From Clavaria fumosa (Eukaryota > Basidiomycota > Agaricomycetes > Agaricales > Clavariaceae), in NCBI GenBank assembly GCA_951802425.1, contig OX637795.1, positions 4,258,501 through 4,322,500 of the forward strand: DNA of 64,000 nucleotides. The letters run 5' to 3'. The notes below the pieces were generated by a model. That model worked only from the letters and a program-made list of their open reading frames with translations. It did not search any database and was not told where the DNA came from. Below are positions 11,531 to 63,295 of this stretch, piece by piece. Position 1 is the first letter of the stretch; each line of letters begins with the position of its first letter. A program made the position numbers and the translations under genes.

Positions 11531-11544
11531 AGCATCAGGGAAAA

Positions 11545-12207: not shown

Positions 12208-12217
12208 CGACACTTGC

Positions 12218-13685: not shown

Positions 13686-13689
13686 CCTA

Positions 13690-15730: not shown

Positions 15731-15738
15731 ATTTCAAC

Positions 15739-17148: not shown

Positions 17149-17179
<31 letters not shown>

Positions 17180-39087: not shown

Positions 39088-41828
39088 AGGCACTAACATG
39101 GGCAGAGATGGTTGAGATGAACCGATGGGTGGATGAGCAATTAGCATCTGGATGTATCTGACCCTCTAAATCCCCATATGCAAGCCCCTTCTTCTTCAAA
39201 CATGAGAAGGACAAGCTGCAGCCGATTATTGACTACTCGAGGCTAAACAAGCATCTGATCAAGGACAAGTACACATCAGAGACACAGTGGATGTGCGTAA
39301 GGGAGCGTCCATCTACTCCAAGATAGATGCAAAAGGTGGCTTCCCCTCGATGCAGGTTTGGCCAGAACACCAGCACTGCTGCACTTTCCTGACACCTCGC
39401 AGACTCTTCGAACCAGCTGTCATGTGGTTTGGGCTGCAGAATGCGCCTGCAACCTTTCAGCGCTTCATGAACCATGTGCTGAGAGAGGAGATTGCAGGAG
39501 GACATGTCTGGGCCTATGTTGATGATGTCATAGTGTTCGCAGAAGACTTGGCTACCCACCAGTACTGGATGAATTGAGTTTTGGAGAAGTTTGGAAAGAA
39601 TGGGTTGTGCCTCAGACTCAGTAAATGTGAGTTTGAAAAAAGTGAGATCATCTTCCTTGGGATGAAGATCTCTCACAACCGCTTGGAACATGATCTGGTG
39701 AAGGGTGAAGCAGTGTGGAACTGGCCACGACCTAGGAATGTGAAGGAGGTGCAAAGGTTTAATGGGATGTTAAACTACCTCTGTCACCACATCCCGAACC
39801 TCTCAGCCCATGCCAAACCATTGTTCCGGTTGACAGGGAAAGTTCCATGGAAGTGGGAAGCAGAGGAAGAATCAGCCTTCCAGGATCTCCAGCTAGCACT
39901 CGTATCAGCACCTGTCTTGGCTCTACCACAAGACAAAGGGAGATGGAAGGTAGAGACAGACACGAGTAACCTAGTGACTGGAGGAGTGCTCTTGCAGCAG
40001 CAGATGGATGGGACCTGGAAAGTGGTGGACTCCATCTCCCAAGCCCTCTCTGCAGCCGAGAAGAATTATGACATGTATGACAAAGAGTTCTTGGCAGTAA
40101 TCCAGGCACTTCGCGAGTGGTGGGCATACCTCATCGGAGTGGAAGAGACGATTGAGATCTGGACAGACCATGCAAACCTTCAGTACTTCCAAAAACCCCA
40201 GAAGCTGAAGCCAAGGCAGGTCCATTGGGTTGGCAAGCTCCAGTGCTTTGACTTTGAGATCAAGTACCACACTGGAAAATCAAACACAAAGGCAGATGCA
40301 CTCTCGTGGAGGCCAGACTATGGAGAAATGGTGGAGGAAGATGCGCCGGTGCAAGTCTTCCCAGAATGGAAACCTGCATGTCATTCACATTGGAAATGGA
40401 GACGCTACTCCAGAAAAATAGCGTGGTACATGTGCAGAAGCCAGAAGAGCTGGATGATGAGTGGACGAGAGATTGAATGGGACTCTGGCGGAAGGCCAAA
40501 ATCACCTGGGTGCCCCCAGAGGCACGTGAGGCAGTGCTCATCTTCGAGCATGACCTTCCCATCGCTGGTCACCCAGGCCCCCGGAAACTGAGGGCAGTGT
40601 TGCTGAGGTCCTACTGGTGGGTGGGGATGGTGAAGGACTCGGATCGATATGCAGGAGGGTGTCAGATGTGCCAGAAAGTGAAGCCTGACTGCACTAGGCA
40701 TGCCGCTCCACTCCACCCTCACCCAGTGCCTGAAGGGCCTTGGGCAGTGATCTCTTGGGACATTGTGGGCCCTTTCCCCCTCTCCTGTGGGCACAATGCC
40801 ATCCTGGTCATTGTAGACAAGTTCACAAAGCGGACCCTCATTGAGGCTATCGGCCTTGACCTCACTGGACTTGGTGCTGCTCACATCCTCTGAGACTGGG
40901 TCTTCCGTGACCATGGAGTTCCACAGAAAGTTGTGAGTGACCGGGGCACCCAGTTTGTGTCTAAGTTTATGAAGGAGTTTTATGGGATGATTGGGGTTAA
41001 GGCAAACCCAAGTACGGCTTTCCACCCCCAGACAGATGGACAGACAGAATGGGTCAACCAGGAGGTTGAGGTGTATCTCCGGGCCTATGTGGACCACCTA
41101 CAGGACGATTGGGCAGAATGGCTGTCTACTGCTGAGTTTGCACTCAATAACCGCGAGCATTCAGCCACTGGATTCACACCCTTCTACCTAGAATATGGCT
41201 GGCACCCATGGAATGGTGGAATTCGGCCACCCTCAGAGGTGAACCCTGTGGCAGATGAGTGGATGGCTAAGCTCACGGAGTCTCGGAGAGAAGCCAGGGA
41301 AGCGATGGGGAAAGCGGCAGATGCGATGAAGGCCAGTTATGATAAAGGAAAGCGGCTGAGTTGGGAATACTTGAAGGGAGACTTAGTCTGGTTGGACACA
41401 CAGAACCTAAAAATGGATCGACCCTCCAAGAAGCTTGACAACAAGCGGGCTGGACCCTTCATGGTTGAGGAAAAGGTTGGACCAGCAGTGTACCAGCTCA
41501 AGCTCCCCCGAGCATGGCGCATTCATCGGGTCTTCAATGAGCTGCTACTCACCCCGTATATTGCACCCTCTTTCCCTTCTCAGAGTCTACCTCCACCCCC
41601 CCTCCCATGATTGACAATGACCACTTGGAGTATGATGTTGAGGCCATCCTTGATGTCAAGAAGGTGGGACGTGGGGTGAAGTACTTGGTAAAATGTTTGG
41701 GGTACCCTGTGGAGGAGAACACTTGGGAACCTCGTCGCAACCTCACTAATGTCACACTGTTGCTCCGAGACTTCTTCCAGCAACACCCCAACAAGGCAAA
41801 GTTAGCAGGTCGGGACGCCCAGCCTTAA
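39088..41828 (+). pseudogene. Degenerate gypsy pol (RT/RNaseH/IN/chromodomain)
   Basis: Reads AEMVEMNRWVDEQLASG at about 39105, a stretch around 39250-39290 that is shorter than the relative, RT (FGLQNAPATFQRFMNHVL; YVDDVIVF about 39520), RNase H (VETDTSNLVTGGVLLQQQ about 39950; WTDHANLQYFQ about 40162), integrase zinc motif and DDE core (40550-41050) and chromodomain (41630-41790). Lesions: TGA at 39578-39580; a frame change between about 40330 and 40480; TGA at 40891-40893 where the 56-62 kb relative has CGA (Arg); and a frame change in the C-run near 41590-41607. One CpG transition explains the 40891 stop. Not functional. Confidence 0.88.
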
Positions 41829-43800: not shown

Positions 43801-44546
43801 TGTTACGTCTATGCCGCGGGGGTCGGGCGGAGTAACATCCGGGCGGAAATAACAAAGTCCGGTGGGGAACAATAAAGTCCGGGTGAGAGTAACAAGGTCC
43901 GGGTGCGACGGAGCAAACCGGAGTTTGGATGGGGTTGGACTTAGGTTCGGACGAGACTTGGCGAACGTATTGAAACGACGCCCTCTGCGGATCAGTGTCT
44001 CGGATTTCGGGAGAAGTCGGGAGACGGGTTTCAGGCAATGCGGAGTAGAGTGCGAGTAGGCGGGGTTGATAATCAGACTGGCTAGACAAAGCCATAATCT
44101 ACGAGTACTTATACAAAAGTCCGGGGCGATGCTAGCAACGGAGATAACTCCGGTACAACTACGGAATCAGTTCGTAGCTACGGAGTAATGTCTGGGAGTC
44201 AGGAAATAAACTAAACTACGGGACTACAAGACGGAGACGGAATCTGATTGGGACAAAGGTTAAACTACTAACTATGATGTACAGGCATTTCCGGGAGTCC
44301 ATCAAATTGTCCGGGCGACAGGTCTGGGGCAGGACCAGTTCCTGGTTGCCCGAGGCAACAGCAACTAGTGCGGACATCAGTTGGTGGCCCTTCAGGCACA
44401 CTTCCTGATCCTGCGCTACGTCGCGCAAGTGAAGTCCGGCGCTCTGGACATAGGTCCGAGAGCCCGGAGTTGCGATCGGGGGTCCGGAGACCGCCGGAGA
44501 AGGCCGGAGAAGGCCGGAGAATAGTCCGGTTGGCACGGGCATGACA
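43801..44546 (-). repeat. 3' LTR (left) of the 7.9-kb gypsy element
   Basis: 746 bp. The TSD ATAAC precedes it and the PPT follows it on the plus strand. Repeated GTCCGGGTG/GTCCGGAG words and AACAAAGTCCGG occur throughout. Compared with the right LTR, 21 substitutions and no length change. Confidence 0.95.
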
Positions 44547-44691
44547 GTATCTCCCTCTCAGGGCCGAGCCCTCGAGGCCCTAGATCCGTTACCACCCCTG
44601 GACCGGATTGGGGCGTTCGGATCAAGGCGATCGCGATCCGAGGACGGAAATGGGATCGGAGATTCGTCGGAGTTCGAAATCCGTGGCCGGG

Positions 44692-44698
44692 TATATAA
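44692..44698 (+). promoter_or_regulatory. TATA box for the antisense gene
   Basis: TATATAA in the context GGCCGGGTATATAATCCGGG, 58 bp upstream of the ATG at 44756 and outside the LTR. Position and match are typical of a fungal core promoter directing plus-strand transcription, opposite to gag-pol. Confidence 0.65.
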
Positions 44699-44755
44699 TC
44701 CGGGGCATCAATCCACCACCGGTCCCCTCTCCTTAGACCTGAACCACCACCAGGC

Positions 44756-45955
44756 ATGGCTGAAGAAGACAATGAATACGAAGTCCAACTCCGGAAACTC
44801 CAGGTGGAGATGGAGATGTTGCAGGCGAACAAGGCGCGGAGGGAGAAGGAGGTGGCGGAGCGGAGGAGACGAGAGGAGGAGGAGGCGGAGATGAAACGGA
44901 GGGAGGAGGAAGCGGAGCGGAAACGGAGGGAGGAGGAAGCGGAGCGGAAACGGAAGGAGGAGGAGGCGGAGACGAGAAGGAAGGAGGAAGAGGCGGGGAA
45001 AAGAGCGCGGGAACGGAGGAAGGAGTTGGAGGCGGTGCGGGCCACAACGAAGCTGGTGGCCAGCGTGGAGGAGTCAGTCAACCTCCAGGAGGCGGCGGAG
45101 AAAGCGGTGCGGGAGCAGAAGGAGGAGGAGGCGTGGAGGAAGCGCGCAGCGGAGATCACGGAGGCCCAGGGGACCTCGGCCAGAGTAACGTGTGAGCGTT
45201 GCTCCCAGAAAAAACTGGTAGGTTCTCCTGTCTCCGCCGGAGTTCGCGCTAAAGTCTGGGCCAGGAATGGACGGGGCCGGCGAGAACTCGGAGTTGTGAC
45301 GAGTGCCGGGAGAAGTGGGTCGGGTGCATGTGGCCGGGGAAGGCGAAGGGCAAGGGAAAAGGAAAAGACAAGGGAAAGCGGGTCACGCGCCGGGGGACGA
45401 AGTCCGACGCCATGGTAGAGTCGGACTTGGATCGGAGGTCGGAGACGGAGGTGGAGGGCGAGCCGGAGGTGGAGGCAAGGCCGGTGAAGAAGCTCCGGGC
45501 CGAGGATTTCGAGCCGGAGCTGGACCTCCAGTCGACGAACTGGTTCCTCCGGGCCAACGCGGAGAAGAGCCATGAAGTCCGGATGCACTGGAACTCGATG
45601 GTGAAGGGGCTGGAGAAGATGACGAGGAGGTTGGAGGCAGCGATCGGGCAGGTGAGTCATTTCTGGGGCACCTGCAGAGTTCGGAACTGAACTCCAACAG
45701 CTCGTCCTGGACTTCGTCAAGCACCTCAACATGAACAAGATGATCACGGAGAGGGATCAGCTTGCGCAGGATAACTGGATCCTGCGGAGGGTGCTGGAGC
45801 GACAAGATCCGGAGATGGCCCGGGCGGTGGAGCAGGAGATCACGCGCTCCCGTCGTTCTTCGTTGATGGATGTCCGGCCGGAGGTGGGAGAAGGAGCGGA
45901 GCAGGAGATGGAGACGGAGGATGCAGAGGGGGAACCGGACTTAGGTCCGGTGTAA
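44756..45955 (+). CDS. Antisense accessory gene in gypsy element: coiled-coil, Cys-motif protein
   Basis: Three exons, all phase 0: 44756-45217, 45265-45651, 45701-45955 (stop TAA), giving 367 residues without a stop. Intron 1 is 45218-45264 (47 nt, GTAGGT...GGCCAG, branch-like GCTAAAG); intron 2 is 45652-45700 (49 nt, GTGAGT...CAACAG, branch-like ACTGAAC). The protein starts MAEEDNEYEVQLRKLQVEM, has an uninterrupted Glu/Arg/Lys coiled coil to about residue 125, then a cysteine cluster created across intron 1: CERCSQKKL|EWTG...CDECREKWVGC (C-x2-C ... C-x2-C-x5-C), a Lys/Gly-rich basic stretch, and a second helical region with DFVKHLNMNKMITERDQLAQ and an acidic tail. It ends 87 bp from the convergent pol stop. 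Function unknown; nucleic-acid or zinc binding is an inference from the cysteines and basic run. Confidence 0.8.
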
Positions 45956-46041
45956 ATTATTTCGTATATATATTTTTTTTGTGTTTTTGCGAATCGGATT
46001 TCCGTTGATTGGACTTCGTGTGAACTAAGTCCGAGTGAAGC

Positions 46042-49000
46042 CTAAACTCCGAGGGGTCCGGGTTTGTCGGGGTACGCGGAATGGAAGTCTGCGACGAGGT
46101 CTGGTGCGTGCTCAAGCTCCGTAGTGAGCAGCCAGGAAGTTTCTTCGTCGGTTCCTTCGTAACCTGTCCACCGGACCAAGTAGAGTAGCTTACAAGTCTT
46201 CCTCCGGTTGTCGTACTTAGAATCCAAAATCTCCGTGATCTCGAATTCCAGTTCTCCGTCGACAACTACTGGTTCCGGAGGGGGCTGGATCCGGTTCGGA
46301 ATTGTGTTGGCTGTTGCCAATTCCAGCATTGAAACATGGAATACTGGATGTACGGAGCGGAGGGTTTCCGGGAGTCGGAGAGTAAAGGAGCTTCGTCCGG
46401 CTTGAGCGATGATCTCATAAGGTCCGAGCATTTTCTCGCTTAGCTTTTTGGATGGTCGGGTGGTCCGGAAGAATTCCGCCTTGACAAAAACTTTGTTTCT
46501 GACGCGGAAATCCGGGGCCGGAATGCGATGCCGGTCAGCGGACTTTTGGTACCGCTGCTGCGCGGCAAGGATTTGTTGCCGGAGTACCTGGTGGAGTGTT
46601 TCCAGATCAGCAACATAAGTCCAGGCATGGGAGGAAGTCATGTCCTGGTCAACTCGGACGGAGATGTTCGGATGGTAACCTTTGTTAGCGAAGAACGGTG
46701 AAATTCCGGTCGTCTCGCTCGGAGCGTTGTTATATGCAAATTCTGCGAGCGGGAGGAGCTCGGACCAATCATCTTGCTGATAATTGCAGTAAGACCGGAG
46801 ATACTGCTCCAGTGTCTGATTCAACCGTTCAGTTTGACCATCTGCTTCCGGGTGATGTCCGGACGTGAAATGGAGAGTCATGTCGAGGGCTTTTCCGAGG
46901 GAGCGGAAAAAGTGAGAAACAAATTCCGGTCCGCGATCGGAGGTTACGTGTGAGGGAACTCCGTGCTTGGAGAAAACATGCTGGACGAAAAGTCCGGCAA
47001 GGTCCGTCGATGTAACCGTGTCGTAGGTCGGAGTAAAGATTCCTTGCTTGGAAAAGCGGTCAACGACGACAAGAATGGAATTAAATCTGTCGGATTGCAG
47101 GAGGTGTTCGATAAAGTCCATGGAAATTGAATTCCATGGTAATTCCGGGACCGGGAGTTGGTGGAGGAGACTGTAAGGCCGGTGCCTTCGGGTCTTCGAT
47201 CTGCTGCAGTTAGTACAGGAGTTGCAATACTCCGAAACAAAACTGTGAAGTCCGGGCCACATATACTCCCTTCGGATCAAATCCAGAGTCTTGTTTTGTC
47301 CGAAGTGTCCAGAAATCGGGTGGTCGTGCCTATACAGTAGGACACGGAGTCGGAGGTCGTTGGAGTCCAGAACGTATATCCGGTCATCCAGTCGCAGGAA
47401 GCCGGACGCATCTACAGTCCACCGGGGATTATCTCCGGTGCCAGAGAGGACTTTGTCCAGGCGTGTGCTTGCGACCGGATCATCGCGGAGCGAGTTCCGG
47501 ATGTCGGTTCGGAGTTTTTCCTCGTCCATGACAAGGACAGATCGGAGTACGAGTCCTTCGAGGGAAGTTGCTTGGAGGGAGGTGGCCAGCTGTTCGGAGT
47601 TGAAAATCGGTCGGAGGTTTTGCGGATTTACGCTGGTGTAGCCACTATCTCCCTCTTTGGGGTAAACGTCCCATCGTCGGGTGAGGGTGTTGGGTTTTGT
47701 TCCTAGTTTTCCGGGGCGGAATCGGATAACCATATTGAAACCGGAGAGGAATTCCGACCACCGGGCCTGTCTCCGAGACAAAGTCCGGGTAGTTCCGAAG
47801 TATTCCAGGTTTTTATGGTCTGTAATAACGTGGACCGGAATAGCGGAACCTTCGAGGTAGTGACGCCACTCACCGAATGCCTCGAATATGGCCAGGAGTT
47901 CCTTGTCGTGGGTGTTGTAGTTCAACTCCGCGTCGTGGAGCGTCCGGGAGTGAAAAGCGACTGGATGAATTTCTCCAGGTGGCGATTCCACAGAGAGTAT
48001 CACGGCGACTGCGTAGTCCGAAGCATCTGTTTCCACAATTATAGGGACATTGGGGACGAAGTTCGCCAGTATCGGGGCTGAGGTAAAAGCTGTCTTCAGG
48101 GTGTCGAAGGCTTCCCGGCAGTTGGGATTGAAGTTCCAGATGGAGGACTTCCGCATGAGTCGAGTAAGAGGGACGACGATGTCGGAGTACCGGAAGACGA
48201 ATCTCCGGTAGAAGTTGGCGAATCCGAGGAAGGACTGGACATCCTTCACTTTCCGGGGCTCCGGCCATTCCGTAATGGCTTTCACCTTCGCCGGGTCCAT
48301 CGCGAGTCCTTCTGGAGAGAGCAGGAAACCTAGGTACTCAACTCGTTCAGTATGGAAGAAGCATTTTCCTGCGTGAGCGAAAAGTACGTTGGCGCGTAGG
48401 CGCCGGAATACTTCTCGGACATGCTGTACGTGCGACTCCAGGTTGTCGGAGTATACCAGGATGTCGTCCAGGTAGACGATCATAAATTTATCCAGGAGGT
48501 CGGAAAACACATCGTTTACGAAGTGTTGAAATGCCGCAGGGGCGTTAGTAAGTCCGAAGGGCATAACGCACCATTTGAACGAACCATACCGGGTCCGGAA
48601 GGCGGTTTTCCATTCATCACCTTCTGCGATCCGGACCAGATGGTAGGCATGCCGGAGATCGATCTTGGTGTAAACCTTCGCAGTTCCGGCTACGTCCAGC
48701 AGATCACGGGTCAGGGGGATCGGGTATCGGTTTTTCCAGGTGATCTGGTTAAGGGCTCGGAAGTCCATGCATAGCCGGAGACTTCCATCCTTTTTCCAGA
48801 TGAATAAAACAGGAGCTCCATGGGAAGAGCTAGTTGGGCGGATAAATCCAATGCGGAGATGTTCATCGAGGAAATCCCACAGTGTACGGAGCTCCATCTG
48901 GGAGAGGGAATATATCAGCCCATGGGGCGGAGTTTTACCTTCTTCCAGATTAATCCGGAGGTCGTACGGTCGATGCGGAGCTAGGGTGTCCGCTTTCGTC

Positions 49001-49740
49001 TTGCTGAACACATCAGCGAAGTCGTGATATTCCTCCGGGACGGAGGACAGGTCCACCGGTTCGGTTGCGACGGAGCGGACGGATGTTTCGTCACCAAAGT
49101 GGTGCAGCATGAAAGTCCGAGATCCCGTTGACTCGGAGATCTTGGAAAATTTAGCTGCGTTGACAAAACGAATCTCCAGGTGCCGTGGTGGTGATTTTGG
49201 AGGGGGAGTGAGGACGGTAGTTCCCACTTTTGGAGTCGGGGTTTGGGTGTTGGAGGTCGGATTTGATGTTCGGGAATACTTCGGTGTCCGGAATTCGATA
49301 CTGCCTCTTACCCAGTCAACCAACGGGTTGTAGCAGGTGAGCCAGTTATATCCGAGGACAGCGGAGTTGGCGGGATCCATTCAGGCTACCAAGAATTCGA
49401 TATCGAAAAGTTCTCCAGTAGGGAATTGGACGGAGAGAGTGAGTGTGGATTTGACAATGTCCGTAGAGGAGCCATCAAAGAGGCGGAGTGACATGGGGGA
49501 AATCGGAGTTGTCCGGAGTTTGTGTTTCTTGACGAACTCGGGACTTATGAAACAATGCGACGACCCGGAATCAACCAGGGTCCGGAAATACGGAGAACAA
49601 TCTATATTCGGAGCAGACAGAGTTATGTACAAGGAGTCAGACGAAGGGGAAATGGCAGATGTGCCGAGGCAGAACTCGTAACGTGCACTGGCTGGGGCGG
49701 CGTGGTCCTCCGGTAGTGCGGACTTCGAAGGGCTGCTCAC
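46042..49740 (-). CDS. Pol: protease, RT, RNase H, integrase, chromodomain (one in-frame TGA)
   Basis: Lies in the -1 frame relative to gag, overlapping its stop. Protease region with TLVDSGSSHCFISPEF (about 49545-49590) is followed in the same frame by TGA at 49381-49383, then 1112 open codons: LGYNWLTCYNPLVDW, RT (LCMDFRALNQITWKNRYPIP about 48740; WCVMPFGLTNAPAAFQHFV about 48540; MIVYLDDILVYS about 48455-48490), RNase H (VETDASDYAVAVILS about 48010; ITDHKNLEYF about 47815), integrase (HDHPISGHFGQNKTLDLIRR...CNSCTNCSRSK about 47200-47330; DFIEHL, TSDRGPEFV, ADGQTERLNQTLEQY) and chromodomain (FEITEILDSKYDNRR...YLVRWTGYEG about 46140-46250). The TGA sits between LVA and MDP where related proteins are continuous; it is probably a nonsense mutation (CGA to TGA is possible), though readthrough cannot be excluded. 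Confidence 0.93.
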
Positions 49741-50891
49741 GAGTTTTTTGCCCGAGCAGCCGCAGCCTTAACCTCCGGAACTGTGTCGGAGGTCGTGACG
49801 GTCCGGGCTTTCTTGCCCTGCGTGTTCCGGGACTTCGGGCAGTCCTTCGCAACATGTCCGGTTCCTCCGCAAACGAGGCAGAGGTTGTTGTCAAAGCGGT
49901 GTTTCCATTCCTCCGGAGTTAGCTTTCCATCTTTGCCGATCTTATTATCCTTCGGGGGATTGGTCTTTCGTGCGGATCTGGAGGCGTTCGATGCTGCTCC
50001 GGAGTTGTTGGCAGGTTTGTTTCCTCCGGACGATTGTCCGGGGTTATTTGCTTGGCGGGGCTTGTTGTCGGATTTGGCGGGTGCGTTGCGGGAACGTTCG
50101 CCTTGACGTTCCCAGTATCGCGCATCGATGTCCTGGCAGGGTTTGCACAGGACGGGGAGGGAAGTCGGTTTCCCGACTTGGGAAATCTCGTCCTTGAGGC
50201 GGTTCAGGAGTCCGCGGTAATAGTTGTGCCGGAGCGCGGCTTCGTCCCATCGGAGCCGCACAGCTATCCGGTTAAACTCGACGTTGTACATCGTGATCCG
50301 TTGGGAGTCCTTCATGTGGAGGCGGTCGAGTTCGGCCTCCGCATCTCCGACGGGATCGTGCGGTCCGAAGTTATCCTGGAGTTCCTGGACAAATAGATTC
50401 CAGTTGGAAATCCAGTCGGCGTCCGGGGCTTCGCCTAGGAGAGCGGGTTCGAACCATTCGAGAGCGGTTCCCTGCAGGAAGGAGATGGCAAAGTTTATCT
50501 TCACCGAGTCCTCGCTGAAAGTCTTCAGGCGGTCTCGGAAGTTCAATTCGCATTGAACCAAGAAACTACGGAGTTTCTTGGAGTTGGAACCGTTGAACGG
50601 TTCCGGTTCCTTGACGCAGGAAGACGGGGAACCTCGTTCCTTGGTGGATGCGGCCAAGGCACGGATCGCGTCCGCGAGGTTCGGGGCTTCGGGGTCGGGT
50701 TCGGATAACGGGGAGTCGGGCTGTTCAGCCGGAGGAGATCGGGATCGGGTTTCGCATGGGGCGGGTACGGTTGGTTCGTCCCCCTCGCCAGGAGGGGTCG
50801 GGTTGATTAGTTCTCCGAGGTCGGACCCACCAGGGGTCGTCGGCTTGGCGCTTGGGCGCAAACGGGCACTGCATCGGGGAGGTTCGGACAT
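49737..50891 (-). CDS. Gag (capsid/nucleocapsid)
   Basis: 384 codons, MSEPPRCSARLRPSAKPTTP at the start, an acidic Pro/Ser-rich head, then a capsid-like domain (FNGSNSKKLRSFLVQCELNF, WEDxx-type helix region FLQGTALEWFEPALLG, RLHMKDSQRITMYNVEFNRI), a Lys/Asn-rich linker and one zinc knuckle CLVCGGTGHVAKDC (CX2CX4HX4C, about 49850-49890). Stop TGA at 49737-49739. Intact. It begins 31 bp from the 5' LTR, so the leader is very short. Confidence 0.93.
   Translation of the reverse strand: MSEPPRCSARLRPSAKPTTPGGSDLGELINPTPPGEGDEPTVPAPCETRSRSPPAEQPDSPLSEPDPEAPNLADAIRALAASTKERGSPSSCVKEPEPFNGSNSKKLRSFLVQCELNFRDRLKTFSEDSVKINFAISFLQGTALEWFEPALLGEAPDADWISNWNLFVQELQDNFGPHDPVGDAEAELDRLHMKDSQRITMYNVEFNRIAVRLRWDEAALRHNYYRGLLNRLKDEISQVGKPTSLPVLCKPCQDIDARYWERQGERSRNAPAKSDNKPRQANNPGQSSGGNKPANNSGAASNASRSARKTNPPKDNKIGKDGKLTPEEWKHRFDNNLCLVCGGTGHVAKDCPKSRNTQGKKARTVTTSDTVPEVKAAAARAKNS
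49743..49749 (-). promoter_or_regulatory. -1 frameshift slippery heptamer A_AAA_AAC at gag/pol junction
   Basis: In gag frame the minus strand reads GCA AAA AAC TCG TGA: heptamer A AAA AAC, one codon before the gag stop. A -1 slip enters the protease/pol frame (AAA AAA CTC GTG AGC), which is open from there. A_AAA_AAC is an established, efficient -1 site in retroviruses. A small stem TCCG/CGGA lies about 20 nt downstream; no convincing pseudoknot was identified by eye. Confidence 0.8.
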
Positions 50892-50922
50892 TATGATCGC
50901 AGAGTGGTCAGTCTGATTATAC

Positions 50923-51668
50923 TGTTACGTCTATGCCGCGGGGGTCGGGCGGAGTAAAGTCCGGGCGGAAATAACAAAGTCCGGTGGGGAACAATAAAGT
51001 CCGCGTGAGAGTAACAAGGTCCGGGTGCGACAGAGCAAACCGGAGTTTGGACGGAGTTGGACTTAGGTTTGGACGAGACTTGGCGAACGTATTGAAATGA
51101 TGCCCTCTGCGGATCAGTGTCTCGGATTTCAGGAGAAGTCAGGAGACGGGTTTCAGGCAATGCGGAGTAGAGTGTGAGTAGGCGGGGTTGATAATCAGAC
51201 TGGCTAGACAAAGCCGTAATCTACGAGTACTTATACAAAAGTCCGGGGCGATGCTAGCAACGGAGATAACTCCGGTACAACTACGGAATCAGTTCGTAGC
51301 TACAGAGTAATGTCTGGGAGTCAGGAAATAAACTAAACTACGGGACTACAAGACGGAGACGGAATCTGATTGGGACAAAGGGTAAACTACTAACTATGAT
51401 GTACAGGCGTTTCCGGGAGTCCATCAAATTGTCCGGGCGACAGGTCCGGGGCAGGACCAGTTCCTGGTTGCCCGAGGCAACAGCAACTAGTGCAGACATC
51501 AGTTGGTGGCCCTTCAGGCACACTTCCTGATCCTGCGCTATGTCGCGCAAGTGAAGTCCGGCGCTCTGGACATAGGTCCGAGAGCCCGGAGTTGCGATTG
51601 GGGGTCCGGAGACCGCCGGAGAAGGCCGGAGAAGGCCGGAGAATAGTCCGGTTGGCACGGGCGTGACA
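50923..51668 (-). repeat. 5' LTR (right) of the 7.9-kb gypsy element
   Basis: 746 bp, ends followed by TSD ATAAC (51669-51673). On the minus strand it ends ...TAACA, followed by the presumed primer-binding region GTATAATCAGACTGACC, which I could not assign to a tRNA. Confidence 0.95.
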
Positions 51669-52900
51669 ATAACTGAGTATCGCATGGAACATCTCCTTGT
51701 CCACAAAATTATTAATATCGAAGTCTTTTCCCAAGTCCATACTATTGTCCTTCGTCAGCGCAGGATCTGCATACCGTCCGAACTTAGGTACAAGCTGGAC
51801 AACTTGTTGGATATTGTGCAGGAGGAGAATGTCCCCCAACGGGGCATGATTGAAGCGGAACTGACGGGTAACAACAAACATGTCAATACCTGGCTCAGGA
51901 ACATGGATCCGCTCGCCGTCTGGACTGTGCGCAACATGATGATGGGAATACCGAAAATATTGGCCATAAAAGAGGAGAGGAGCATTTGCATTTGAGTGAG
52001 GCATGACTGGTTGGAAAATCATACAGACTTGCACAGCGGTGTGAGCTGCACCTGTGGTGCGAAGTATCAACATAAGAGACTTCAGATATTAGGAGGATTG
52101 ACGCACCGGCGTATGAGGTAGAATTAATTATGTCAGATATATCCCGATCCACAGAAATGATAACAGTATTGCAGCGGCCGTGAGGCAGCTTATCATCAGG
52201 GGGTAGAGCCTGCACAGTTGAAGAGGGGCATACGATTTCTGGGTCTTGGACCGATCTGTGCTGGATCTTGAGGTTGAACCAGATATTCAGTTTCTGGAAT
52301 GGAAGAGTGCAGTTGACACCGCAAAGGCACTGACCACGCCTATCAGAGTACGATCGTCCAGAGTAGAAGTCACCAAGAGCACCTCGGAAATCAGGGATGC
52401 GAAAGTGACAAGCAGCATCTTCGATGGTAATTGCTGACAGATGTGGAGAGTGATTGAGATAAAGAGCAATAGAACCATTGTCGCTAAGAATGCTGCGGTT
52501 ATTTGTGAAGAAATTCCGTGGGAGTCTTGGACCTCTAACTAGTTTATCATCAGGGCGGATGTGAGCGATCCAGGCAGCTTCAGGATAGGATGATGCCATG
52601 AAGCCTTCCTCTCTCCGCATCTCATTCAATAGATTGACACCACTATCCTTCAGGAGGATGAATAAACGAAAGAAACGCCGCTTCTCATCACGATCAAGAT
52701 ATCAACAACACTGCTTGTGAAAATCAACATGGTTTGAGTGGTGGTAGGGATTTTTCGCATGTGTGATATGGCACCGTTCGGTGACATCGCTTGTCCATTG
52801 GTATACGGCGCCCATGGCGCGTATACTCCGTATTACTTGCTGCATTGTCTCAAGTTTTGGTATGTTGAAATGCGGGATGGGTCCCCTTTTTCCACGCCGA
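51669..52900 (-). pseudogene. Plavaka-type transposase, C-terminal part, interrupted
   Basis: Minus strand, starting at 52900 in mid-protein: RRGKRGPIPHFNIPKLETMQ, VIRSIRAMGAVYQWTSDVTE, TGA at 52702-52704 (context QCC*YLDRDEK, Arg expected), PFQKLNIWFNLKIQHRS, VSTVQALPP-like region, then an intron 52052-52106 (55 nt, GTGCGT...CCACAG) joining YAG to AAHTAVQVCMIF in frame, PLGDILLLHNIQQVVQLVPK, FGRYADPALTKDNSMD and FVDKEMFHAILSY. Across the gypsy insertion the frame continues at 43800 as Q-stop (TAG 43790-43792). These blocks are characteristic of the Plavaka transposase family of basidiomycetes. The N-terminal half is missing: the frame stops at 52900/52901 where an LTR-like sequence begins. 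Doubly disrupted plus a nonsense codon, so inactive. Confidence 0.75.
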
Positions 52901-54386
52901 TGTCAGGACCCATTCAATTTTCCTTTACCCAAGCCGACTCCACCAACATCTACGGCCCTCCTGACGACCCTCTACCACCTCGCGTACCCCTCTACCCACT
53001 TCCGAAACCCGCTATCTCCTTCTGGAAACCTCTCCAACCTCCCCCACGCTCACACAACACTCGCGACCACCATGCTGTACTCGCGACGCTTCCTACTACT
53101 TCACCCTATGTGCATACTTCGCCCAGATCCACCAATCCTACGTGCGACACACTGATTCGCGTTTACTTCCACCAGCACGTGACTTGCCGAGCGGCACCCC
53201 CAGCGCTACCACTACCAGTGCCAATACATTACCAGCGTTATGACCGTTACTTGCGTTACCAGCGTTACCCATGTGACTAACTGCCTGTAGGTCACCTGCG
53301 TCACTAGCGTCACCCACATGATCGCTCTTATGATCTTGTGACCTTAACACTCAAACGCGCCACCAACAGTCAGCTGTATGTACACTTCAAATATGCGTCC
53401 CTTCTTCTCCTCAGTCGTCTATAATTACGTTACTTATGATCTGAGAATCCCTCCGTAGTTATAGCGACGTATATACTTATTTAACTAGGTTGCGACTTGT
53501 GACAAGTCATCTTCGCAACCTTACCTATGCATACCTGACCCCTTGCGACCTTAGTAGAACATGCGCCTAGTCACTTTACGACTAAACATAACCCATACTA
53601 CTATAGTCTTGTCGCCTGGCGACCTCTGTACTTTCCCTTTTTTGTTATACTCTCTGTACGCACGTATATAAGTCTCGCATGTACTTCTCGTACTGTAGAC
53701 TTGATATTGACGCACATTGGTTTAAGCTTGAGGCTAGTACACCCTTTGAGCTTGGAACCACCATGATTGATTGGTCTTGTCTCTCTTGGTGACCACAAGA
53801 TCGCCAAGACACACACTACTCTGTTCTAACTCACCCTCTGCATTCCAACAACTTGCGCGATCTAAGTATTCTCTGTTATTCGTCTTGGTACTGATCTTGG
53901 AACCCTACAGGTTCACTCGTTGGTTGGCAAAGTCATCGCCTTCACCGACACATTTCTCAACACTGTCGCAACCACCGCGATCCTTCCAACATTCTCTATT
54001 TCTTTCACCTTGTCTTTTTCCTTCTCTACGCTTTGTCGGTCGACCTCGCGACCTTCTCAGCATTATCACTTTCCCCCACCTCGTCTATTCCTTTCTTCAC
54101 GCTTCATTGGTTGACTTCGCGACCCTCTCAGCATCACCCATTTCCCCCCTCCTTGTCAATTTCCTCCTTTACGCTTCGTCTACTGACTTCGCAACCTTCC
54201 CAACGACGTCTTCCTCCTCTATACTTATCTTTCTTCGCTCTTACATCTTCTCAGACGTCTTCACGACCTTCCAGGACTGAGCATTCTCGACTGTGCTCAA
54301 CAGTTGATTGGTCTTAGTGAGTTTCCAGCATAGGTCACCAACAAGTCGATCTCCGGCACTACTATCGAGACAGGACAGGCCCTAAC
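52901..54386 (+). repeat. Probable 5' LTR of a decayed gypsy element
   Basis: Starts TGTCAGGACCCATTC exactly where the Plavaka-type frame is cut and is taken to end GGCCCTAACA at 54386 (1486 bp). It contains TATATAA at 53665-53671, a plausible promoter, and a cluster of GTTACC/GTCACC words at 53220-53320. A gag-like pseudogene follows about 430 bp downstream. No second copy is in the window, so the boundaries are inferred from TG...CA, the interruption point and the downstream gag. Confidence 0.5.
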
Positions 54387-54819
54387 ATAATATCAAGTCT
54401 ACCCCTCACCCCACCACTCAACACCTGGATAACACAAACCATTATGTCTTCCAGTCACACTCCTCCCCAACCAACCACTCATCACTTTCAGACATGCACA
54501 GGTAGCCGCGCAATTACTCCAATGATCTTGGAGACTACTTGCGAGCCGCCTACCACCATTCAAGAGTGACCTGCGTCCGTCGTTCAATCACAGCCCGAAG
54601 ACCCCGCCCAAATCGCACCTAGCCACGCCTTGTCCCCATGCGAAGAAGCCAAGACCCTCGTGGAGCAGTTCGGCTACCCGCGCTTCAACCGCCCTTGCCA
54701 CCGTACTTACCAAATTCTCAACAATACTCGCTGCCAATACAAAACCAGAACTCTTGATGAAGAATTAGCATATCTCATTGAGACGACGAATCTCTACGAG
54801 GCATTGGTACGATTAACAG

Positions 54820-55640
54820 ATGGATTCTGAGCTAACCCGCAGAACCGACTCTACGAGAGTCAATGCCAGTATCCATGCACTACCGACCGAGGAGCCCTGT
54901 CTCCCCCCGACCTGGATACCCCCTCGCAACCTCCGAGAGTCACCCAGCCTACAAGAGGACCCCGAGACATGGCCCCACTTTTCCAAGTCACAGCACAATC
55001 CCTGCAGAACTTTGCCAACCCTGCTGCGCCCAACGAGCGACCCGCCATTGTCTCCAGGATCCCTAGGTACACCGCCCCTCGCAGCAGCTGGCCTACGTGG
55101 ACGCAGCCAGCCACTACTCCGAGTAGGGCACTCCCTTGCGACCCTATAGGGACTGAGGCAATGCTTCAACCTGCCCCTTGCCTCGAGATTCCGGTCGAGC
55201 CCTTCCGTATTCCACAACCAGAAGCGCGACCAGTACCCCAGATGGAGATGCGACCAGCATCTCGCCCTCCGTCACAGGCTGAAGCCCCACAGGTCCCTCT
55301 GGTCCCCCCTATGCCTCCACACCCCGCCGCCGCGCTTTGAGATGAGGCCCCTGGTACCCACCACCACCATTACTATTACCAGGCCCCTCCCTCTGAAGGA
55401 CCATCGGCCCAAGACGCCTTCACTTGAGAATCCAAGCTCGACCCCAGATGTCCCGAACTGTTCAATGGTCGTGACTGACGCAAGTGGAAACCTTTCATCA
55501 CGGAATGCCTAATGACTTTCTTTGCCAAGCCCATAACCTTCCAAGGAGATCACAAGAGGGTTACTTTCACCACCTCTTACCTCACGGACACCGCGCAGAG
55601 CCACTACACCTCCCTCCTTCAATTCAATGCCAAACACCTG
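54820..55640 (+). pseudogene. Decayed gypsy gag fragment
   Basis: From about 54970 one frame carries a Pro-rich region and then, after 55338, DEAPGTHHHHYYYQAPPSEG, SKLDPRCPELFNGRD*RKWK and FITECLMTFFAKPITFQGD, TSYLTDTAQSHYTSLLQFN (to about 55627), a gag/capsid block common in basidiomycete gypsy elements. It is broken by TGA at 55338-55340, 55425-55427 and 55476-55478; the last replaces an expected Trp (GRDWRKW). The homology stops abruptly at about 55640. Confidence 0.7.
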
Positions 55641-56331
55641 GCTAGCTGTAAAACAAATGGCCAATGCAAGTTTGGCCACATAATAAAAAACTGCAAAATG
55701 TGTTATAGGAACCTTGTAGACATGTTCTATAGGTAAAACAATACAACTTTTGTATGGATCATGTCTCACCCCACTTGCTACTTCAAAAGATCCCCTGGTT
55801 TTCATTTTGGCCTCTTCCTAGTGTATCATTACAAAGAATAGCATATTGTACAATACGTAGGCATGGGAGGCCTATGAAACTTTGAGGAGACATTCTCTAT
55901 AGTATATCAATGGTTTATGGCCACTTACCTGATCCCCTAAGCTTCTACTTTCAAAGATCCCCTGATTACATATTCTGTACTCATGAAGCAATTCTTGCCC
56001 TCACTGCACCCAAAAAATTTTTGATTTTTTTTTTTCAAAAATGTTCACCAACCCAATGTTCACCAACCCAATGTGCAATTGTATGGTCTTTTTGGTGGCA
56101 CTGTGGGTCATATTTTTCACAACTCAGTTGTTCTCTTGGCTACAAATATTATAATGTTAGTGGGCTGTGCCATGTAATATGGCCTTATGCCTTATTCCAT
56201 AATGAGTGTCCAGTTGAGTGTGCAAATGTCAGCCTGTGAATGCAAGAAGCGAGGTGCTTCTCACCAGTACGTATTGGAAGGCCCTGTGACAGGGGGAAGA
56301 GGATCCAGCATGAGGACAAAAGGACAAGATA
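55641..56331. other. Intergenic, no gene seen
   Basis: AT-rich, with a tandem ATGTTCACCAACCCA duplication (about 56040-56070). No coding signal or transposon end recognised. Confidence 0.4.
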
Positions 56332-56336
56332 CGATC

Positions 56337-56644
56337 TATCAGACTGGGTCTCACACAACTTAAGGGTAAGGTCATGATGACAATACTAAGATAAGGGGAA
56401 AAAGGTACAAATAGTGGAAAGTGAAATTATATATAGCAAACTTGCCAAAACTTTCCCATGCATGGACCTTGGGTCACGTGATTTTCCCACGCCCTCCTCT
56501 TCTTGCTGTTTGTACACGTTTGTAGTCACCGTCTGACGGTGACCTTCCGCATCCGGCTGTGAGGTCACGTGACTTTTCCCATGCTCTCCTCCTCTGTTTT
56601 TCCACAACTGCTCTTTTAGGATGCTTATGTAAGCGATCCTAACA
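56337..56644 (-). repeat. 3' LTR of the 5.9-kb gypsy element
   Basis: 308 bp; minus strand starts TGTTAGGATCGCTTACATAA and ends GTCTGATA (TA instead of the usual CA, in both LTRs). Contains a TATA-like ATTATATATAG near 56426-56436. Confidence 0.95.
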
Positions 56645-56655
56645 TCACCCCCCTC

Positions 56656-59600
56656 TTAAGGCTGGGCGTCTCGACCAGGCAATTTTGCTTTGTCAGGGTG
56701 TTGCTGGAAGAAGTCCTGGAGCAACAGAGTCACATTGGTGAGGTTCCGGCGAGGTTCCCAGGTGTTCTCCTCCACAGGGTACCCCAGCCATTTCACCAAG
56801 TACTTCACCCCACGCCCAACCTTTTTGACATCAAGGATGGCTTCAACATCATACTCCAAGTGGTCATCGTCAATCGTGGGAGGGGGGGGTGGAGGTGGAC
56901 TCTGAGAAGGGAAAGAGGGTGCAATATATGGAGTGAGTAGCAGCTCATTGAAGACCCGATGAATGCGCCATGCTTGGGGGAGCTTGAGCCGGTATGCTGC
57001 TGGTCCAACTTTTTCCTCAACCATGAAGGGTCCAGCCCGCTTGTTGTCAAGCTTCTTGGAGGGTCGATCCATTTTCAGGTTCCGTGTGTCCAACCAGACT
57101 AAGTCTCCCTTTGAGTATTCCCGACTTGGCTGCTTTCCTTTATTGTAACTGGCCTTCATCGCATCTGCTGCTTTCCCCATTGCTTCTCTGGCTGCTCTCT
57201 GAGACTCTGTGAGCTTGGCCATCCACTCATCTGCCGCAGGATTCACCTCTGAGGGTGGCCGGATTCCACCATTCCATGGGTGCCAGCCATATTCTAGGTA
57301 GAAGGGCGTGAATCCAGTGGCTGAATGCTCGTGGTTATTGAGTGCAAACTCAGCAGTAGACAGCCATTCTGCCCAATCGTCCTGTAGGTGGTCCACATAG
57401 GCCCGGAGATACACCTCAACCTCCTGGTTGACTCATTCTGTCTGTCCATCTGTCTGGGGGTGGAAGGCTGTACTCGGGTTTGCCTTAACCCCAATCATCC
57501 CATAAAACTCCTTCATAAACTTAGACACAAACTGGGTGCCCCAGTCACTCACAACTTTCTGCGGAACTCCATGGTCACGGAAGACCCAGTCTCGAAGGAT
57601 ACGAGCAGCACCAAGTCCAGTGAGGTCAAGCCCAATAGCCTCAATGAGGGTCCGCTTTGTGAACTTGTCCACAATGACCAGGATTGCGTTGTGCCCACAG
57701 GAGAGGGGGAAAGGGCCCACAATGTCCCAAGAGATGACTGCCCAAGGCCCTTCTGGCACAGGGTGAGGGTGGAGTGGAGCAGCACGCCTAGTGCGGTCAG
57801 GCTTCACCTTCTGGCACATCTGACACCCTCCCGCATACCAATTCGAGTCTTTCACCATCCCCACCCACCAATAGGACCTCAGCAGTGCTGCTCTCAGCTT
57901 CCAGGGGCCAGGGTGACCAGCGATGGGAAGGTCATGCTCAAAAGTGAGCACTGCCTCACGTGTTTCTGGAGGCACCCAGGTGATTCCAGCCTTCCGCCAA
58001 AGTCCCATTCGATCTCTTGTCCACTCATCATCCAGCTCCTCTGGCTTCAGTACATGTACTGCGCTATTTTTCTGGAGTAGCGTCTCCATCTCTGATGTGA
58101 ATGATACACGGGTCTCCACTTCTGGGAAGACTTGTATTGGCACATCCTCCTCCACTGTCTCCCCATAGTCTGGCCTCCGCGAGAGTGCATCTGCCTTCGT
58201 GTTTGATTTTCCAGTGCGGTACTTTATCTCAAAGTCAAAGCACTGGAGCTCCCCCACCCACCAGACCTGCCTTGATTTCAACTTCTGGGGCTTCTGGAAG
58301 TACTGGAGGTTAGCATGGTCTGTCCAGATTTCAATGATCTCTTCCACTCCGATCAGGTAAGCACGCCACTCACGTAGTGCCCGGATTACAGCCAGGAACT
58401 CTTTGTTGTACATGTCATAATTCTTGTCAGCTGCAGAGAGGGCCTTGGAGATATAGTCTACAACTCTCCAAGTCCCATCTGTCTGCTGCTGCGAGAGAAC
58501 TCCTCCAGTTGCCAAGTTGCTTGCATCTGTTTCTACCTTCCATCTCCCTTTGTCCTGTGGTAGGGCCAAGACAGGGGCCGATACGAGTGCTAGACGAAGA
58601 TCCTGGAAGGCCGCTTCTTCCTCTGCCTCCCATTTCCAGGGGACCTTCCCAGTCAGCCGGAATAATGGTTTAGCTCGGGCAGAGAGGTTTGGGATGTGCC
58701 AGCAGAGGTAGTTTAACATCCCATTAAACTTCTGCACGTCTTTGACATTCCTGGGCCTAGGCCAGTTCCGCACTGCTTCACCTTTGGCTGGGTCATGCTC
58801 CAAGTGATTGTGAGAGATCTTCATTCCAAGGAAGATGATCTCACTTTTCTCAAACTCGCATTTACTGAGCCTGAGGCACAACCCATTCCTCCCAAACTTC
58901 TGTAGCACCCGATCCATCCAATAGCGGTGGGTGGCCAGATCTTTCGCAAACACGATGACATCATCCACATATGCCCGGACATGTCCTCCTGCAATCTCCT
59001 CCCTTAGAACGTGGTTCATGAAGCGCTGGAAAGTGGCAGGTGCATTCTGTAGTCCAAACCACATAACAGCTGGTTCGAAGAGTCCACGAGGTGTGAGGAA
59101 GGCACAACGGTGCTGGTGCTCCGGCCAGACCTTCATAGACAGAAAACCTCCCTTCGCATCGATCTTAGAGTAGATTTTTGCCCCTTTGAGCACATCCACC
59201 GTGTCACGGATACGGGGAAGGGGGTACTTGTCCTTGATCAAATATGAGTTCAGCTTCGAGTAGTCAATAATTGGGTGCAGCTTGTCCTTCTCATGTTTGA
59301 AGAAGAAGGGGCTTGCATATGGGGATTTCGAGGGTCGGATACGTCCAGATGCTAACTGCTCATCTACCCATCGGTTCATCTCCACCATCTCTGCCCGTGT
59401 CAGTGAGTACAGCTTAGTGGAGAGGTGCCCAGGATCAGTTTTGAACTCAATTTTAATGTCAAAGTCAGGGCGGGAACGGGGGAGCTCATCCCACTTTGCT
59501 TCACTGAAGACTGTGGGGTGGAGGCTGGGCCAATCAGGAGTGGGGCCATCATTGGGAAAACAGGTGTCCGGAATACTGGCAGAAGCCAGGGTACTTGTTT

Positions 59601-60279
59601 TCGGGGGTGCAGGGACTCGTTTAGGAGTTGGGCGGCTGTGCGGGGAAGAGGCACAGGCATAGGGGCAGCGAGTGAGCCTTACTTCGGCTTTCACCCAGTC
59701 GATCTCTGGGTTATGATGTTTTAACCAATCATGCCCAAGGATTGCCATGTGGGACTGGGTCTTCCCTAGCAGGAAGTGGATCCGTTCCCGGTGATCACCA
59801 ACTGTCACAAGCAACTCTATCCCATACCGGATCTTGCCATCCCTGTTCTGTGTCCCATCCACATTGTACATGGTGATCAGGTTCAGCAGGGGGGATGGCT
59901 CTAATCCCACTTTTTTACCCCACTCCAAGTCCATAAAGCAGTTGGTGCAGCCTGAGTCGACAAGGGCTTTTGTGGTTGCCCCCCTGCCAGTGCTGAGAGC
60001 TTCCAAGTGCACCTGGATGGAGAGCTCTCAGGGCATATGCAACAGTGTGTCCTTCAGCACCTCTGCCAGGTGCTTGGTCGGTTCCACTTTTCTGCTAGTG
60101 CCCATTTCCTTTCTCGGTATTTCACTCTTAGCGGTTTCCGTTTCCGCTTTGTCCTTTGCCTCAGCCCCAATCCGGGTATGTCTCTGCTGCAATATAGTGT
60201 ATTTGGGGATACTAGCTGTGGGTACAGGGACGGGAGGGGGGCTGGGGTATCTACTCTTGAGGCACCAGTTTGGACTCAC
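56656..60279 (-). pseudogene. Pol (protease, RT, RNase H, integrase, chromodomain) with two in-frame stops
   Basis: The frame enters from the gag overlap at 60279 (SPNWCLKSRYPSPPPVPVPT). TGA at 60028-60030 precedes ELSIQVHLEAL; then protease ALVDSGCTNCFMD (about 59930-59970), RT (AEMVEMNRWVDEQLASGRI about 59340-59400; WFGLQNAPATFQRF about 59030; AYVDDVIVFAKD about 58930-58970), RNase H (VETDASNLATGGVLSQQ about 58490-58540; WTDHANLQYFQ about 58300), integrase zinc motif (HDLPIAGHPGPWKLR...CQMCQKVKP about 57800-57940) and core (WDIVGPFPLS, TDGQTE), then TGA at 57430-57432 right after GQTE where the related copy at 41.0 kb has TGG and the element at 1-3436 has an Arg codon. The last 252 codons finish integrase and the chromodomain (YDVEAILDVKK...YLVKWLGYPVEENTWEP) to TAA 56656-56658. 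Confidence 0.92.
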
Positions 60280-61277: not shown

Positions 61278-61929
61278 AGACCCTGGTGGTGGTGATGGGG
61301 TTTCAGGGACGTCGGTAACGGGGGAATCGGGGGGGAGCTGGGCTCGACCCGGTCTTGGACGTAGATGCTGTAAATAAGATTCCAGGCCTTGGGCACTCAG
61401 GATTTCTTCGATCTCTTAGCAGTCCTGTCCTCTCAGGCTGCTCTCTATGTACTTAGGTACTTATAGAACTCTTATTCTATAAAACCTGTTGCTAACATGG
61501 GGCCTGAACAGTGTCCCAGGTGGTCACTCCACAACCCCTAGTGAGTTGCCTGTGTGCCCTTCTGACAATGGTCACAGAGCAAAGTACCCTGTCCACTGGA
61601 CCAGGAAACTACAGAAAGACTATGTAGAGGGCTTTTCCATGCCCTGTACACTACACAATTTACAGGTACATAGCTGCAAAACAAAGTTCCGGGCCTTTGG
61701 CACTCGGTATCGCTTGAGGAGGGTCACAGTAGACTTCCTCTGGGTCTGGTCACGTGTATCTACACACAGTAAAAATTTCGTGCGGTTCTGTTACACACCG
61801 CAGGCAGGGTAAAGGAGAAGAGGATGATGGGGGCTGAGCTGTGGCAACATGTCACAGTTTGAAATTAGGGGTCCAGGCTAGCCAGGTTAGGACATGGGGC
61901 TAGGGCAGACAGGGTGGATCTTAGTATTA
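61278..61929 (-). other. 5' leader between LTR and gag
   Basis: 652 bp, no gene. The start (minus TAATACTAAGATCCACC) is the presumed primer-binding region, not assignable by eye to a tRNA. Confidence 0.5.
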
Positions 61930-62238: not shown

Positions 62239-62243
62239 TGATC

Positions 62244-63261: not shown

Positions 63262-63295
63262 ATAGATTATGAGATTCGTTGCACAAACCGACAAC

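What the first reader, a model, noticed from the sequence alone, without database searches (positions are those of the whole stretch)
44692..45955. Intact, intron-containing antisense gene carried inside a Ty3/gypsy retrotransposon
Seen: on the strand opposite gag-pol, between the pol stop and the 3' LTR, a TATATAA box is followed 58 bp later by a gene of three phase-0 exons whose two introns (47 and 49 nt) have good fungal splice and branch signals. Splicing yields 367 residues with no stop, and a cysteine cluster (CxxC ... CxxC-x5-C) is formed only when intron 1 is removed. Known: some plant gypsy elements carry antisense extra ORFs in this location. Inference: an intron can persist through retrotransposition only if it is antisense to the genomic RNA, so this is a coherent design rather than chance. 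The protein (coiled coil, basic stretch, Cys motif) may act on the element's own silencing or mobility. This is the best candidate for an undescribed system here.
Basis: partly seen in the sequence, partly recalled or inferred. Interest (0 to 1): 0.9.

Follow-up and report, generated by a model that had tools for sequence, protein, structure and literature searches.

The report
Antisense zinc-cluster gene in fungal retrotransposon
A jumping gene of a fungus carries on its opposite strand an intron-containing, selected gene for a probable DNA-binding protein, and the jumping gene itself is densely packed with a short DNA word of the type such proteins read, which suggests that it makes a regulator addressed to itself.

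Summary
Opposite gag-pol, between pol and the 3' LTR, lies a three-exon gene (44756-45955, introns 47 and 49 nt). All 30 copies examined keep both introns; 13 of 30 have an intact spliced frame. dN/dS is about 0.24; pN/pS is 0.29 in the true frame, 0.40-1.43 in the other five. Intron 1 splits it, and this copy has lost the third cysteine. Antisense genes with such clusters occur in at least three other Gypsy lineages here. The element is packed with TCCG/CGGA: 30-43 per kb in all seven segments, LTRs included, against 3.7-6.3 elsewhere in the window, beyond synonymous-codon shuffles. Two elements without a detected gene lack the enrichment; one with a divergent gene lacks it too. Best reading: a self-addressed DNA-binding regulator, comparable in action to plant VANC. 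No data on expression, binding or effect. Precedents: antisense genes of plant Gypsy elements and Botrytis Boty (brtn).

The parts
43801..44546 (-). 3' LTR (746 bp), containing phased CCGG-type arrays: 10-bp period at 44484-44521 and four sites 20 bp apart at 43842-43902
44692..44698 (+). TATATAA box of the antisense gene, 64 bp before its ATG; kept in 19 of 21 copies checked; flanked by CCGG and TCCGG
44756..45217 (+). exon 1: Met to coiled-coil and first half of the cysteine cluster (CERC..KKL)
45218..45264 (+). intron 1, 47 nt, phase 0, splits the cysteine cluster; GT-AG in 30 of 30 copies
45265..45651 (+). exon 2: rest of the cluster (third Cys missing here), Gly-Lys basic stretch, acidic stretch, helical part
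45652..45700 (+). intron 2, 49 nt (48 in one copy), phase 0; GT-AG in 30 of 30 copies
45701..45955 (+). exon 3: C-terminal helical part, acidic tail and stop
46042..49380 (-). pol ORF (RT, RNase H, integrase, chromodomain), 1112 aa; the relatives with an open pol have one frame of 1241 aa, so pol of this copy is split by an in-frame stop
49737..50924 (-). gag ORF with CCHC knuckle
50923..51668 (-). 5' LTR (746 bp)
43801..51668 (.). whole element: TCCG/CGGA at 30-43 per kb in all seven segments counted, on both strands

Best explanation
Shown: the antisense gene is a real, selected protein-coding gene of a Ty3/Gypsy element and has been kept with its introns through transposition. Inferred: its own promoter between LTR and gene makes a spliced antisense mRNA; the protein dimerises through its coiled coil and binds DNA through a Zn2Cys6-type cluster; it reads a CGG-type word (TCCG/TCCGG, often AASTCCGG) that has accumulated along the whole element and in phased arrays in the LTRs; by coating its own family it keeps the copies transcribable or counters silencing. 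It acts in trans, so that copies with a damaged cluster, such as the window's, can still be served by others.
For: Gene and introns: GT-AG in 30 of 30 copies, 13 of 30 intact; median dN/dS 0.24 in 62 of 78 pairs with dS above 0.05 and 0.243 in 41 of 45 pairs after collapsing segmental duplicates; pN/pS 0.29 in the true frame against 0.40-1.43 in five others. The four youngest insertion events by LTR identity all have an intact gene, 3 of 9 older ones do (Fisher P 0.049). Cluster: C-x2-C-x6-C-x10-C-x2-C-x6-C; Pfam Zn_clus above cut-off in fragments of related antisense genes (24.9, 21.7, 22.1 bits; cut-off 21). Word: 30-43 TCCG/CGGA per kb in all seven segments against 3.7-6.3 elsewhere in the window; beyond synonymous-codon shuffles in pol (z 8.3), antisense gene (4.3), gag (2.5); CGGAG likewise in L047, L048, L025 (z 7.1, 6.8, 8.1). 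Genome-wide, paired-word matches 630 against 132 for the reversed pattern; 80 of the first 100 listed lie within 8 kb of an antisense-gene hit, 3.0% of that contig. Phased LTR arrays.
Against: No expression, splicing, binding or phenotype data. Zn_clus is below cut-off for this family (13.4-14.8 bits) and absent for the window copy and L053. Six of 13 intact copies, 3 of 10 after collapsing duplicates, lack one cysteine. Word sites in LTRs are not more conserved than other CpG sites (0.912 against 0.897). The L049 lineage has a divergent antisense Cys6 gene but no TCCG enrichment. L043-L045 are enriched though their gene lacks its donor site. A control word was also high in the antisense gene (TGGCC z 3.1). 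Only two elements without a detected gene were compared.
Confidence: 0.5

Rival explanations
1. The protein is a regulator of retrotransposition that works at another step: it carries or tethers the preintegration complex to CGG-rich DNA, chiefly older copies of its own kin (integration targeting or nuclear delivery).
For: Flanks of 17 copies hold 12.5 TCCG/CGGA per kb, above the window background (duplicated insertions not removed); pol has a chromodomain.
Against: Several insertions lie in flanks with few or no sites. Does not by itself explain why the element's own genes are filled with the word.
Confidence: 0.15
2. The protein is a repressor or copy-number limiter of its own family rather than an activator.
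For: Same binding evidence; antisense retroviral proteins such as HBZ are regulators (named in PMC11963269, passages).
Against: Selection on the element to keep a self-repressor is harder to explain than selection to keep an activator; not tested.
Confidence: 0.12
3. The word enrichment has nothing to do with the protein: it is a mutational or composition habit of these Gypsy lineages, and the antisense protein does something else.
For: Uniform density also in coding regions, unlike VANC sites in non-coding DNA (PMC5735166, passages); sites are not more conserved than other CpG sites; L049 has a gene without it.
Against: Other Gypsy elements of the same genome do not show it; present in LTRs and on both strands; exceeds synonymous shuffles; occurs in lineages whose pol proteins are only about 30-60% identical.
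Confidence: 0.2
4. The product that matters is the antisense RNA (for example as a source of double-stranded RNA), the protein being incidental.
For: Antisense transcripts are proposed as self-regulators in plants (PMC7264820, passages).
Against: Amino-acid-level purifying selection, gaps in multiples of three, introns more divergent (0.148, 0.092) than exons (0.059-0.077).
Confidence: 0.02
5. A chance ORF or passenger host gene without function.
For: 17 of 30 copies are broken.
Against: dN/dS, intron retention, homologous genes in the same place in other lineages.
Confidence: 0.01

Closest known systems
brtn of Boty-like Ty3/Gypsy elements of Botrytis cinerea (Zhao et al. 2011, not held; seen only as citations and passages in PMC7264820, PMC8365987, PMC4227169, PMC5987419)
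   Same: Extra antisense gene in a fungal gag-pol element with chromodomain.
   Different: I could not compare sequences or learn whether brtn has introns, a cysteine cluster or an element-wide word; host is an ascomycete.
Antisense additional ORFs of plant Gypsy elements (Grande gene23, RIRE2, Retand TRP28; PMC11963269 and PMC7264820, passages)
   Same: Antisense, between pol and 3' LTR, conserved in most copies; Grande protein nuclear, TRP28 predicted to bind DNA, own promoter in Grande.
   Different: No introns mentioned in the main text of either paper (term count 0); unrelated domain (TRP28); no element-wide word mentioned in the passages seen.
VANC anti-silencing proteins of Arabidopsis VANDAL DNA transposons (PMC5735166, passages; PMC10398659, abstract)
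   Same: Element-encoded protein reads a short word accumulated at high density in its own family, partly as tandem arrays; words differ between families.
   Different: VANDALs are not LTR elements; VANC words lie mainly in non-coding DNA, here the density is uniform and includes gag, pol and LTRs; no relationship tested; anti-silencing here is only inferred.
Fungal Zn2Cys6 transcription factors (Pfam PF00172; GAL4, LAC9, PPR1)
   Same: Six-cysteine spacing; CGG-type word (CGG preference of the family is recalled).
   Different: Cluster lies after the coiled coil, not at the N-terminus; weak Pfam scores; encoded by a retrotransposon.

Membership tests
Ty3/Gypsy LTR retrotransposon with chromodomain | LTRs with TG..CA ends and target-site duplication | tested here: met
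   17 of 17 other copies with both LTRs have identical 5-bp flanks
Ty3/Gypsy LTR retrotransposon with chromodomain | gag; pol order RT-RNase H-integrase-chromodomain | tested here: met
[quoted passage not shown]
Antisense additional ORF between pol and 3' LTR (aORF-3R) | transcribed from its own promoter | not testable with these tools
   only a conserved TATA box seen; no RNA data
Fungal Zn2Cys6 binuclear cluster (PF00172) | six cysteines with family spacing | tested here: inconclusive
   complete in 7 of 13 intact copies and 16 of 30 overall, incomplete in the window copy; canonical spacing recalled
Fungal Zn2Cys6 binuclear cluster (PF00172) | profile score above the curated cut-off | tested here: not met
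   this family 13.4-14.8 bits, window copy none, cut-off 21; met by 2 fragments of family 2 and 1 of family 3; PDB profile search weak, E 0.096 for LAC9, below two integrin hits
Fungal Zn2Cys6 binuclear cluster (PF00172) | binds zinc and CGG-type DNA | not testable with these tools
   needs protein chemistry
VANC-like self-addressed anti-silencing system | short word at high density in own family, rare elsewhere | tested here: met
   genome-wide list seen only for its first 100 places
VANC-like self-addressed anti-silencing system | word concentrated in non-coding regions | tested here: not met
   uniform density across LTRs, spacer, gag, pol and antisense gene
VANC-like self-addressed anti-silencing system | protein binds the word and removes silent marks | not testable with these tools
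   no data
brtn of Boty | sequence homology to BRTN | not tested
   sequence and paper not held

The most novel reading that the evidence does not exclude
A lineage of fungal Gypsy elements carries a co-evolving lock and key: a spliced antisense zinc-cluster protein and a lineage-specific DNA word written throughout the element, LTRs, gag and pol included, which lets the element recognise and activate (or unsilence) only its own kin. Lineages diverge by changing both: TCCGG/AASTCCGG in this family and family 2, CGGAG without CCGGA in L047/L048, and perhaps CGCGA in L049 (18 against 8.2 expected, z 4.0). It would be a VANC-like system invented independently in retrotransposons.
Probability: 0.33. 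Interest if true: 0.92.

Novelty: new variant of a known kind. Interest (0 to 1): 0.78.

Why it matters
What antisense genes do for LTR retrotransposons is stated as unknown in the plant papers seen (PMC11963269, PMC7264820). Here a likely DNA-binding protein and its likely target word lie in the same element, in several lineages, so the question becomes directly testable. If true, it shows that retrotransposons too can evolve sequence-addressed self-activation, and it gives a neat case of introns that survive retrotransposition because the gene runs antisense.

Tried and rejected
Chance ORF: rejected by selection and intron retention. Antisense RNA alone: disfavoured by amino-acid-level constraint. 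Homologues of the window gene in the large protein collection: none at E 1e-3 in two searches (1446 and 125 candidates); with the L052 gene ten were found (capped at 7996 candidates). Viral contigs: 32 pattern matches, no relative. L047/L048 were chosen as elements without the gene, but proved to carry a diverged one, so they changed from controls to cases after I had seen their enrichment; L049 likewise proved to carry a cluster gene but without TCCG enrichment. Site conservation in LTRs gave no support. Preferred spacing between sites has no null model, and its peaks at 10-40 bp come largely from the LTR arrays, counted twice. L043-L045 looked like a dead-pol family with a living antisense gene, but their gene lacks the intron-1 donor. 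The structure model of a family-3 homologue is poor at the cluster (mean pLDDT 67, pTM 0.24; long helices 37-102 and 191-291), so no fold search was run. Paper searches that found no report of a zinc-cluster antisense gene in a fungal retrotransposon: (open-licence papers only, listings seen); one search was for VANC.

Full report
The element. The window lies in an unnamed 48.8-Mb assembly of 17 contigs; that it is a fungus, probably a basidiomycete, is my inference from gene and element style, not a tool result. A Ty3/Gypsy element occupies 43801-51668 with gag-pol on the minus strand. Its LTRs match at 96.95% over 754 bases and it is flanked by ATAAC duplications. Its pol is one 1112-aa ORF preceded by a separate 128-aa piece, where relatives with an open pol have a single 1241-aa frame: the window copy has an in-frame stop.

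The gene. On the plus strand, three exons (44756-45217, 45265-45651, 45701-45955) give 367 residues. Its TATA box is outside the LTR, flanked by CCGG and TCCGG, and is present in 19 of 21 copies checked. One search found 44 matches of the gene in the genome, the window included (40 of 73 candidates scored). I fetched 29 of the other 43; the 14 others, mostly fragments, were not examined. In all 30 sequences (window plus 29) both introns have GT-AG ends; 13 of 30 have an intact spliced frame.

Selection. Among the 13 intact copies median dN/dS is 0.24 (62 of 78 pairs with dS above 0.05, range 0.20-0.41). In the true frame pN/pS is 0.29, in the other five frames 0.40-1.43; pol of 8 copies with an open pol (window and 7 of 20) gives 0.15. 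Introns diverge more (0.148, 0.092) than exons (0.059-0.077). Flank comparison showed that L022, L023, L026 and L027 are segmental duplicates of one insertion, as are L011, L012 and L014; with one representative of the first group the median is 0.243 in 41 of 45 pairs (flanks of L033, L034 and L036 were not compared). The four youngest insertion events (best LTR identity 98.7-99.7%) all have an intact gene; of nine older events three do, counting the L011/L012/L014 group as intact because L012 is (Fisher P 0.049). One member of the youngest duplicate group, L022, has only 96.4% LTR identity.

The cluster. In 16 of 30 copies the spliced translation holds C-x2-C-x6-C-x10-C-x2-C-x6-C. The cluster straddles intron 1. 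The window copy lacks the third cysteine. Of 13 intact copies 7 have all six cysteines; five lack the first (R in the L022/L023/L026/L027 group, W in L028) and the window the third. So the cluster is usually but not always kept, which fits a protein acting in trans, or a weaker need for it than I assume. Zn_clus (PF00172) scores are below cut-off for this family (13.4-14.8 bits), above for two fragments of family 2 (24.9, 21.7) and one of family 3 (22.1; two others 19.4 and 18.6), none for L053 and the window copy. A profile of nine hand-chosen fragments with complete clusters (window copy not among them) finds LAC9, PPR1 and GAL4 only weakly (E 0.096, 0.83, 5.9), behind two integrin hits; in it the six cysteines are the only invariant columns, partly by my choice of fragments.

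Relatives in the genome. A protein search gave 143 matches, including diverged ones at 36-50%. I fetched nine of these (L038-L046). In family 2 (MADNGDNYEIKIEKL...) the gene also lies antisense and downstream of pol, with intron 1 at the same place (about 73 nt in L038 by my count) and the third cysteine just after it. Pol identities to the window are 23-54% in short pieces, 32% over the long L040 stretch, and 60.6% for the C-terminus in L046. No pol was found beside the gene in L042. L040 lacks the second half of the cluster, and L043-L045, 98-99% identical to each other, have a degenerate pol and a gene lacking its donor site. In L047/L048 (pol 60% identical) a 401-aa single-exon antisense ORF carries CARCHRLGVACVWPSGGRGTACNACAGAKQKC (L051, L052); in L049 (53%) an antisense exon carries CDNCVAKGRQCERSTAGKCRQCAEDHGKC followed by coiled-coil exons (L053). 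Beside L050 (39%) and the other Gypsy fragment of the window (34%) none was seen in about 2 kb.

Relatives elsewhere. The L052 protein has ten homologues of 58-77% identity in the large collection (context and orientation unknown); five cysteines are invariant in all 11 and the sixth is missing in one.

The word. TCCG/CGGA occurs at 41.6, 43.1, 36.7, 35.6, 36.5, 30.3 and 38.9 per kb in 3' LTR, spacer, gene, pol, gag-pol junction, gag and 5' LTR, against 3.7, 6.3 and 4.2 in window 1-38000, 52500-64000 and the other Gypsy fragment. Against dinucleotide expectation TCCG is 2.6-fold, TCCGG 3.9-fold and AASTCCG 13.5-fold over-represented in the element; TCCG is 1.8-2.9-fold in L038-L046, 2.3-2.4-fold in L047/L048, 0.7 in L049, 1.2 in L050, 1.1 in the window's other Gypsy. 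With protein and codon usage held fixed, TCCG/CGGA still exceeds expectation in pol (119 against 72.0, z 8.3), the antisense gene (z 4.3) and gag (z 2.5), not in the control pol pieces (-0.9, -0.6); one unrelated control word was also high in the antisense gene (z 3.1). CGGAG gives z 5.7, 7.1, 6.8 and 8.1 in window, L047, L048 and L025 pol, and -1.0, 1.3 and -0.7 in L049, L050 and the control. The genome holds 630 matches of AASTCCGGN{3,30}TCCGG against 132 of the reversed pattern; of the first 100 listed, all on one contig, 80 lie within 8 kb of an antisense-gene hit, a zone of 3.0% of that contig. Sites on both strands and in LTRs point to recognition of DNA, not RNA or protein coding. LTRs hold a 10-bp-period array and four sites 20 bp apart.

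Against. Word CpGs in 39 LTRs are no better conserved than other CpGs (0.912 and 0.897). L049 has the gene without TCCG enrichment. The number of families compared is small, and L047/L048 became cases only after inspection. Nothing shows expression, binding or effect.

Conclusion. The gene is real and selected (about 0.97). That it is a Zn2Cys6-type DNA-binding protein is likely (about 0.75, my estimate). That it reads the element's own word and controls the family is the best single mechanism (0.5 overall), activation or anti-silencing more likely than repression or integration targeting. Antisense genes in Gypsy elements are known in plants and in Botrytis, so the kind is known; the introns, the zinc-type cluster and the matching word are the new parts as far as my open-library searches (listings only) show.

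Noticed in passing
window 39233-41828 (+): Second, diverged Gypsy pol (34% identical) in several frames, no antisense cluster gene in the next 2 kb, no TCCG enrichment.
   Followed up: partly
window 46042-49767 (-): Pol of this copy is split by an in-frame stop compared with 1241-aa open frames in relatives.
   Followed up: partly
L022, L023, L026, L027; L011, L012, L014: Copies with near-identical flanks and the same target duplication: segmental duplicates (the first group partly near contig ends) of single insertions.
   Followed up: yes
L043, L044, L045: Three copies 98-99% identical with degenerate pol: a recently amplified or duplicated family that probably depends on others.
   Followed up: partly
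L028 and the L022/L023/L026/L027 group: First cysteine of the cluster replaced by W or R in otherwise intact, mostly young copies.
   Followed up: partly
L049, L053: Another antisense cluster gene with C-x2-C-x6-C-x7-C-x2-C-x6-C; its pol is enriched for CGCGA (18 against 8.2), a possible different word.
   Followed up: partly
window 10001-24000: Strong negative GC skew; words CCCTC and CTCTC are over-represented in the window outside the element.
   Followed up: no
G000 C3:4648343-4649008 (-): An RT-domain match within a 4352-aa open frame.
   Followed up: no
L020 LTR: Old copy with many lost TCCG sites (12 against 28-34 in most others), suggesting CpG decay and perhaps DNA methylation of copies.
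   Followed up: no
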